Source of the DNA: Thiorhodococcus sp.
Lineage (GTDB): Bacteria; Pseudomonadota; Gammaproteobacteria; Chromatiales; Chromatiaceae
Length of the DNA stretch: 64,000 bases
Direction of reading: 5' to 3'
Assembly: GCA_029257385.1 (NCBI GenBank)
Contig: JARIBS010000078.1
Span: 1-64,000, forward strand
Shown: piece after piece, positions 1 to 13,246 of the stretch
Numbering within the stretch: the stretch's first letter is position 1
Layout of the letters: the number at the start of each line of letters is the position of its first letter
Notes under the pieces: generated by a model
Databases searched by the model: none
The model's input: the letters and a program-made list of their open reading frames with translations, nothing else
Told to the model about the DNA's origin: nothing
Made by a program: the position numbers and the translations under genes

Positions 1-127
1 TGATCGCGATCAAAACGCGGCGATCAACACGCTCATGGCTGGGGTCGGAACGACCCTCGAACGGGACGTGCGGCATGTCGCATGATCCCGCCCGGAATCC
101 CCCGGCTTTAGCCGTGGGGAGGTTCAA
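1..127 (+). mobile_element. 3' (right) end of an IS200/IS605-family element: TnpB C-terminus plus right-end hairpin ending in TCAA
   Basis: Frame from base 2 reads DRDQNAAINTLMAGVGTTLERDVRHVA*, resembling the TnpB 'DRDxNAAxNI' C-terminal motif. It is followed by the hairpin CCCCCGGCTTTAGCCGTGGGG and GGTTCAA, as in IS605-type right ends. The 5' part lies outside the window. Confidence 0.8.
2..85 (+). CDS. tnpB: RNA-guided endonuclease TnpB-family protein, C-terminal fragment (truncated by window edge)
   Basis: DRDQNAAINTL motif; stop TGA at 83-85. Confidence 0.75.
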   Translation, partial: DRDQNAAINTLMAGVGTTLERDVRHVA

Positions 128-154
128 TGATTCGATCGCGTTGGCGCATCCCGG

Positions 155-1195
155 TCAATCGGCCTGCCGTGGGACATGCTCGCTATAGCGCTCCATGAGA
201 TAACACAGACAATCCTGCCTGATCACCGTCTCGTCGAGTGTGAGCATGGAGGGCATCATGGGTTGTTTGAGCCGAAGCTCGCCGTCCTGGATGCTGAAAT
301 AGTGCTCGCTCACATCTCGTCCCAGCTCGTCGCGTACATCCAGGCTGGCCGCAGCGTTCTTGCCCAAGGTTGCAAAGCGGGTTCCGCGCGGCAGCTCGCG
401 GAAGTTCATCCACTCTAACTCCGGGTCCAGCAGCAGATCCGCCTCTCCCGGCGAGAATCCGAAACTCAGCGTCTCGGGCACCTTGACCTGGGCGACGGTG
501 TGGAAAAGATCGATATCTTGAGGCGGTGGCGGGTAGTCCGGTATCTCGGTCAGATGCAGGGCCGCGTCGATGAAGTCGCGTGCATGCTCGACACCCTGCG
601 CGTCACCGACTTTCCCGCATTCTACGGTCACGGCTGGACAGAGCTTCGACATGGCTAGGGACTGCACACCGGTCGGGCGAATAAAGTAGACCAGGGTGCG
701 GCTGAACAGTCGCGCGAGGTGGAGAAACTGGGCGTCGATGCGGTTGATGCAAGCGTAGTGTGGATTCAAACCGGTATTGTTGTGCAGATCCAGGCTCGCG
801 AAGATCCCGCGCCCGGCCATGATCTCGACGACCCGCGCCATCAGCGTGTGCTCTAGGGTGATCGGTTCAAGCTCGGTGCCGGGCCACACCCGATTATAGT
901 CCGGCTGTCCGGGCAGACGTCTGACCCCGCTGGCCGCTGCGCTGACGTTGCCGATAAAGAGACTCAGCGCACGCGGCAGGCGCAGCTCGCCGAACCGCTC
1001 GAGCCTCTCGCGCAGCAGCACGCGCATGGCGTCCCAGCCGACCGTCTCATTGCCGTGCATGAGCACCGAGACGAACAACGGCGGCTCGCGCGTTCCGCTC
1101 AGATGGATCAGCGTTGGCGCGCCGAGCAGGGCGTCGAGATTGCGGCTGTCGGTGTCGAGAAGCGTCTCTGGCAGTCTGTCGAACTCTTGCAGCAT
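155..1195 (-). CDS. M14-family succinylglutamate desuccinylase/aspartoacylase-like protein
   Basis: 346 aa; contains SVLMHGNETVGWDA (HxxE-type zinc motif) and SLDLHNNTG. Confidence 0.75.
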   Translation of the reverse strand: MLQEFDRLPETLLDTDSRNLDALLGAPTLIHLSGTREPPLFVSVLMHGNETVGWDAMRVLLRERLERFGELRLPRALSLFIGNVSAAASGVRRLPGQPDYNRVWPGTELEPITLEHTLMARVVEIMAGRGIFASLDLHNNTGLNPHYACINRIDAQFLHLARLFSRTLVYFIRPTGVQSLAMSKLCPAVTVECGKVGDAQGVEHARDFIDAALHLTEIPDYPPPPQDIDLFHTVAQVKVPETLSFGFSPGEADLLLDPELEWMNFRELPRGTRFATLGKNAAASLDVRDELGRDVSEHYFSIQDGELRLKQPMMPSMLTLDETVIRQDCLCYLMERYSEHVPRQAD

Positions 1196-12872: not shown

Positions 12873-13246
12873 CTGGGAGTCGGCCAGGCAGCCGCTCTTT
12901 TCTAGATGGGAAAGGGAGGAAAGTCCGGGCTCCATTGGGCAGGGTGCCAGGTAATGCCTGGGGGGCGTGAGTCCACGGAAAGTGCCACAGAAAACATACC
13001 GCCGATCCCATCGCTGCGATGGGAGGTAAGGGTGAAATGGTGCGGTAAGAGCGCACCGCGCTGGTGGCAACACCAGTGGCAGGGTAAACCCCACCCGGAG
13101 CAAGACCAAATAGGGGGACTCGCGGCCTCGGCCGCAGCGCGCGGCCCGTGCGCGTCCCCGGGTAGGTCGCTTGAGGCGCGCGGTGACGCGTGTCCTAGAT
13201 GAATGGCTGCCCTCGACAGAACCCGGCTTATCGGCCGACTCCTTCC
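12873..13246 (+). ncRNA. rnpB: RNase P RNA, bacterial class A
   Basis: GAGTCGGCC...GGCCGACTC terminal pairing; GAGGAAAGTCCGGGCTCC, CCACAGAAAACATACCG, GGTAAGGGTGAAATGGTGCGGTAAGAGCGCACCG, GGTAAACCCCACCCGGAGCAAGACCAAATAGG. Confidence 0.95.

What the first reader, a model, noticed from the sequence alone, without database searches (positions are those of the whole stretch)
1..145. TnpB/omegaRNA remnant with a readable guide pointing into flanking DNA
The window opens with a TnpB C-terminus, an IS605-type right-end hairpin and a TCAA end. In characterised TnpB systems the omegaRNA reads through the right end and takes its guide from the DNA just beyond it, here about 128-143 (TGATTCGATCGCGTTG). 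That would make this a candidate compact RNA-guided nuclease whose guide matches its donor-joint target.
Basis: partly seen in the sequence, partly recalled or inferred. Interest (0 to 1): 0.6.

Follow-up and report, generated by a model that had tools for sequence, protein, structure and literature searches.

The report
Right end of a TnpB insertion element
The first 127 bases are the right-hand end of an ordinary multi-copy IS200/IS605-type insertion element, cut off where the assembly breaks. Its TnpB family is slightly unusual because it lacks the usual second catalytic residue, so calling it an active RNA-guided nuclease is not established.

Summary
Window 2-85 encodes the last 27 residues of a TnpB, 99-119 is a right-end hairpin, and the element ends with TTCAA at exactly 127. 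Five other copies in the same genome share the sequence up to 127 and then diverge. Window base 1 is the first base of its contig, and two sister copies start at the same base. The missing TnpB is therefore an assembly break, not evidence of a remnant. An intact 351-aa homologue with both ends lies in Thiobaca trueperi. Unoccupied orthologous sites place insertion after (T)TGAA, so the DNA beyond the right end is the donor-joint target, as in other TnpB systems. Guide 128-143 is readable and has no second perfect site in the genome. This copy's left flank is unassembled, so its own joint is unproven. 'Compact RNA-guided nuclease' is the weak part: the family lacks the RuvC-II glutamate at both described positions, although the two RuvC aspartates are invariant and two other acidic residues (D247, E285) are nearly so. 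The rearrangement may belong to an already catalogued class. Verdict: an ordinary mobile element, and a new member of a known kind with a non-canonical RuvC-II site. Relatives lie in 37 metagenomic viral contigs.

The parts
2..85 (+). 3' end of tnpB (27 codons plus stop TGA), including the RuvC-III motif DRDQNAAIN; the gene is cut by the contig start
99..119 (+). right-end hairpin CCCC-CGGC-TTTA-GCCG-T-GGGG (last stem of the putative omegaRNA and the subterminal palindrome of the element)
123..127 (+). element terminus TTCAA; the boundary with host DNA lies after 127
   Evidence: six copies diverge here; the same TCAA end in viral relatives
128..143 (+). predicted guide (host DNA next to the right end); could run to about 147 for a 20-nt guide. 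Predicted target is TGAA followed by this sequence
   Evidence: boundary; no other perfect match in the genome; inferred from the Thiobaca joint
155..1195 (-). neighbouring host gene, AstE/AspA-type (succinylglutamate desuccinylase/aspartoacylase catalytic domain); the element lies 27 bp beyond its stop codon

Best explanation
Window 1-127 is the right end of one of at least six copies of an IS200/IS605-type insertion element carrying tnpB, truncated here by the contig break. A Y1 transposase encoded by elements with the same left end probably moves it as single-stranded DNA, inserting it 3' of (T)TGAA. The transcript running through the tnpB 3' end and past the right end would give an omegaRNA whose guide is the host DNA from 128 on. 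TnpB with that RNA would recognise TGAA plus that guide in the vacated site and help keep the element in the genome. Shown: the right-end boundary, the copy number, the left end, the target site in a relative, the family and the fold. Inferred: transcription, omegaRNA processing, transposition by the shared-end TnpA, and DNA cleavage. Cleavage would have to use a rearranged RuvC-II site, with D247 and/or E285 in place of the canonical glutamate.
For: Multi-copy right end with a sharp boundary and unrelated flanks. Contigs C3, C14 and C15 all start at the same base, as expected for a collapsed repeat. Left ends carrying a hairpin and TGAAC lie at the ends of several contigs, in some cases leading into a Y1 TnpA reading frame. 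Thiobaca trueperi has left end + 351-aa TnpB + right end. The empty-site comparison gives insertion after TTGAA. TnpB families match over their full length, and the predicted fold matches ISFba1 and ISDra2 TnpB (model pLDDT 84). Right-end hairpin covariation. RuvC-I and RuvC-III aspartates and all four zinc-finger cysteines are invariant across 34 distinct sequences.
Against: This copy's tnpB body, left end and left flank are not assembled, so its completeness is unknown. No expression data. Canonical RuvC-II Glu is absent (S245 at ISDra2 E278), and the alternative Glu six residues before the zinc finger is absent too. Whether tnpA and tnpB sit in one element in this genome is unresolved.
Confidence: 0.85

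Rival explanations
1. The TnpB family is nuclease-dead and acts only as an RNA-guided DNA binder, a TldR-like repressor.
For: No glutamate at either described RuvC-II position in any of 33-34 aligned sequences. Nuclease-dead, phage-encoded TnpB relatives (TldR) exist (PMC13418256), and relatives of this family sit in viral contigs.
Against: RuvC-I D173 and RuvC-III D327 are invariant, and acidic D247 and E285 are nearly so, which is unlike loss of an active site. Copies are mobile with flank-specific guides, not a fixed regulatory guide. A TnpB with a rearranged RuvC-II site has been shown to cleave (RII-r5 clade, PMC10278001).
Confidence: 0.2
2. The window copy is a decayed remnant with no functional tnpB, like the degenerate copies on C80, C85 and C100 in the same genome.
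For: Degenerate and internally deleted copies do exist, and the copy is incomplete in this assembly.
Against: The window's right end is 100% identical to C15 and 94-98% identical to four other copies, with an open C-terminal frame, whereas the decayed copies are only 86-88% identical. Truncation coincides with the contig end.
Confidence: 0.2
3. The hairpin and TCAA are chance, or a transcription terminator of the neighbouring gene rather than an element end.
For: The hairpin alone is not unusually stable and it lies just beyond the astE stop.
Against: Six copies with unrelated flanks end at the same base, the hairpin covaries across the family, and no run of T follows.
Confidence: 0.01

Closest known systems
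TnpB element of Thiobaca trueperi DSM 13587 (L044:2264-3474)
   Same: TnpB 87% identical to the best window-genome copy over 143 residues; same left and right ends; same TTCAA terminus
   Different: Complete, contains no tnpA, and sits at the start codon of an SbcD-like gene
ISDra2 / IS608 (IS200/IS605 family) and ISDra2 TnpB (8exa, 8bf8)
   Same: Subterminal hairpins, TCAA-type right end, insertion 3' of a short target, same TnpB fold. The ISDra2 TAM TTGAT is from PMC10278001; the IS608 details are from general knowledge
   Different: Target (T)TGAA rather than TTGAT. Ser at the E278 position, with D247 and E285 as candidate substitutes
TnpBs with rearranged RuvC-II (RII-r clades, PMC10278001; Ealt/Fanzor-type, PMC10711439)
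   Same: Canonical Glu missing; DPG at RuvC-I as in the DPG/Ealt group; closest plasmid homologues (about 33% identical) have Ealt
   Different: This family has Ser (sometimes Pro or Asn) at the Ealt position, a conserved Glu three residues further upstream, and an invariant Asp two residues after the canonical position. Whether this equals one of the numbered RII-r classes could not be checked
TnpB homologues in IMG/VR contigs (L082-L118)
   Same: 58-75% identical TnpB; most with the same type of right end and differing flanks
   Different: Carried in viral contigs; a few lack a recognisable right end

Membership tests
IS200/IS605-type insertion element | Subterminal hairpin and TCAA-type right end at a fixed boundary | tested here: met
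IS200/IS605-type insertion element | Left end with subterminal hairpin | tested here: met
   Met for other copies and for Thiobaca; this copy's left end is not assembled
IS200/IS605-type insertion element | Insertion 3' of a short target without target duplication | tested here: met
   Thiobaca joint against empty orthologous sites, TTGAA|ATTCAT; not testable for the window copy
IS200/IS605-type insertion element | Y1 TnpA in the same element or acting in trans | tested here: inconclusive
   The same left end leads into a Y1 TnpA frame on C54, C4, C50, C89 and C106; the element bodies are unassembled, and the Thiobaca copy has no tnpA
TnpB (OMEGA) RNA-guided nuclease | TnpB protein family and fold | tested here: met
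   NF040570 205.5 bits against a cut-off of 100; PDB fold hits 8iaz, 8h1j, 8exa
TnpB (OMEGA) RNA-guided nuclease | RuvC-I Asp and RuvC-III Asp | tested here: met
   D173 and D327 invariant; RuvC-III is also in the window at 2-10
TnpB (OMEGA) RNA-guided nuclease | RuvC-II catalytic Glu at the canonical or alternative position | tested here: not met
   Ser/Thr/Leu at the canonical site, Ser/Pro/Asn at the alternative site; D247 and E285 are candidate replacements
TnpB (OMEGA) RNA-guided nuclease | CxxC...CxxC zinc finger | tested here: met
   Four Cys invariant in 34 of 34; outside the window for this copy
TnpB (OMEGA) RNA-guided nuclease | omegaRNA crossing the right end with a guide from the flank | not testable with these tools
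   No RNA data; only the hairpin and boundary are shown
TldR (nuclease-dead TnpB repressor) | Loss of RuvC aspartates | tested here: not met
   Both Asp invariant
TldR (nuclease-dead TnpB repressor) | Immobile, fixed guide against a host gene | tested here: not met
   Copies are mobile with a different flank each

The most novel reading that the evidence does not exclude
This TnpB subfamily, moved between phages and purple sulfur bacteria, uses a third arrangement of the RuvC-II site (D247 and/or E285, with neither the canonical nor the Fanzor-type glutamate). It is either a nuclease with a new catalytic geometry or a TnpB that targets something other than double-stranded DNA.
Probability: 0.25. 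Interest if true: 0.5.

Novelty: new member of a known kind. Interest (0 to 1): 0.25.

Why it matters
As found, it is a routine transposon end. What could matter is the family behind it. TnpB-Cas12-Fanzor enzymes are thought to need D-E-D, and the rearrangement described in detail moves the glutamate to one known alternative place. A mobile, conserved subfamily with neither glutamate would test how far the RuvC-II site can shift while still cutting, or show that some mobile TnpBs only bind. A 351-aa protein with a defined end and target site would be easy to test.

Tried and rejected
I tried to find C3's left partner by synteny. Same-genus relatives have a DUF218-type gene and lipA after astE, but this genome has no close orthologue of the former, its lipA is on C76, and no left-end contig matched. 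Other targets of the guide: only 2-mismatch sites, none preceded by TGAA. Rfam has no omegaRNA match here. The window 1-127 DNA is absent from PLSDB plasmids and from 37 other genomes of related genera and families. Fixed-guide, TldR-like domestication was considered and rejected for the mobile copies. Active-site distances in the predicted model could not be measured because no coordinates are returned. The 2023 PNAS TnpB/Cas12 classification, which I recall as defining the RII-r classes, is not held.

Full report
What is there. The window begins with 28 codons in frame 2-85 (27 residues and a stop), DRDQNAAINTLMAGVGTTLERDVRHVA. This is the C-terminal end of a TnpB, starting inside the RuvC-III motif. 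Longer frames on other contigs of the same genome carry the same end and hit PF07282 and NF040570. A hairpin follows at 99-119, and TTCAA at 123-127.

Boundary and copy number. A search of the window's own genome with 1-145 gave nine places. C3 (the window), C15, C14, C113, C55 and C43 are 94-100% identical up to window base 127 and diverge immediately after it. That fixes the right end. C80 and C85 are decayed copies (86-88%), and C100 matches only over about 35 bp. The window is G000:C3:1-64000, so window base 1 is the first base of a contig, and C14 and C15 start at the same base. The truncation is therefore an assembly break at a repeat. It says nothing about whether this copy's tnpB is intact.

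The complete element. Thiobaca trueperi has a complete relative: a left end with a hairpin, a 351-aa TnpB (P0001) 87% identical to the C113 fragment, the right-end hairpin and TTCAA. The same left end is found at the ends of several contigs of the window's genome. On C54, C4, C50, C89 (start) and C106 it leads into a Y1 TnpA frame; on C62 and C89 (end) it leads into a different upstream region, apparently a tnpB-only form. Six right ends attached to tnpB against seven left ends at contig ends (five of the tnpA type) suggest that some elements carry both genes. That is an inference from counting only.

Target site and guide. Joining the Thiobaca flanks gives GAGATTGAA|ATTCATCCACGCGG, which reads TTG AAA TTC ATC, the start of an SbcD-like gene. 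Unoccupied orthologous sites in relatives read TTTTGAA|ATTCATACACGC and, in the window's own genome, TAGTGAA|GTTCATCCACGC. Insertion therefore follows (T)TGAA, the element starts with C and ends with TTCAA, and the DNA beyond the right end is the target at the vacated site. That is the general rule for TnpB systems (5' TAM and guide-dependent cleavage, PMC10278001; derivation of the guide from the flank is established knowledge of the family). For the window copy the guide would be 128-143 (up to about 147). It has no second perfect match in the genome, and the five two-mismatch sites are not preceded by TGAA. Its own left flank could not be found, so the donor joint of this copy is predicted, not shown.

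RNA. The hairpin covaries across 21 right ends of the family (84.6% of cells paired against 66.4 in shuffles; covariation score 0.441 against 0.165; no shuffle as high). This supports a conserved hairpin but does not separate a DNA role in transposition from an RNA role. The window's 64-nt piece is not unusually stable; the 194-nt piece of the C113 copy is (z -3.23).

Is it a nuclease? P0001 matches the TnpB family over its full length (205.5 bits against a cut-off of 100). Its predicted structure (pLDDT 84) matches ISFba1 and ISDra2 TnpB. A scan of viral contigs gave 37 loci with relatives 58-75% identical. Across 34 distinct sequences RuvC-I D173, RuvC-III D327 and the four zinc-finger cysteines are invariant wherever the sequence reaches them. 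But the residue at ISDra2 E278 is Ser (30 of 33; otherwise Thr or Leu). The alternative position six residues before the zinc finger, defined in PMC10711439, is Ser, Pro or Asn. The closest plasmid homologues, about 33% identical, have the alternative Glu. D247, two residues after the canonical position, is 33 of 33, and E285, three residues before the alternative position, is 33 of 34. One RII-r5 TnpB with a rearranged RuvC-II site is known to cleave (PMC10278001), so the family may well be active. Neither activity nor inactivity is shown.

Judgement. The copy is one of several, is cut by the assembly and is not demonstrably a remnant. The readable guide is normal for the family. The nuclease claim needs the caveat about RuvC-II. 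I rate it a new member of a known kind with low interest, and keep the rearranged RuvC-II site as the reading worth testing.

Noticed in passing
IMG/VR loci L082-L118: 37 viral contigs carry full or partial relatives (58-75% identical) of this TnpB, while among 274 sampled genomes of the same class only two have one at E <= 1e-50. Most have a right-end hairpin, TCAA and differing flanks, so they look mobile.
   Followed up: partly
L105:2501-4623 (also L106): A TnpB of this family lies between a DNA polymerase III alpha-like frame and an SbcD-like phosphoesterase in a viral contig (gene names judged by eye). Its stop overlaps the next start (TGATG) and there is no recognisable right end; it may be domesticated. 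L103, L107, L090, L092, L102, L112 and L115 also lack an obvious right end.
   Followed up: partly
L034 (G000:C100, about 68527-68770, minus strand): A mini-element of roughly 230 bp with the same kind of left-end and right-end hairpins, starting after TTGAA and ending in TTCAA, with no tnpB: a likely non-autonomous derivative.
   Followed up: partly
L025 (G000:C106:68-939): A left end of the tnpA-type element adjoins and interrupts another TnpB-like frame whose zinc finger is degenerate (TASWTGE) and whose canonical Glu position is not Glu.
   Followed up: no
L023 (G000:C113:478-1405): The C113 copy interrupts a gene that continues in frame across the right end (NLSDITIDHGYSALCGYTQQDLE), probably of the AAA-ATPase/PD-(D/E)XK type that occurs in several copies in such genomes (from memory).
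   Followed up: no
window 12876-13246: Bacterial RNase P RNA, class A (Rfam RF00010, 342.6 bits); ordinary.
   Followed up: no
L095 and L097, just after the right end: The same TnpB element sits upstream of the same gene (TAATGGCTACCGCAACG) in both contigs, but with different short DNA between the right end and that gene.
   Followed up: no
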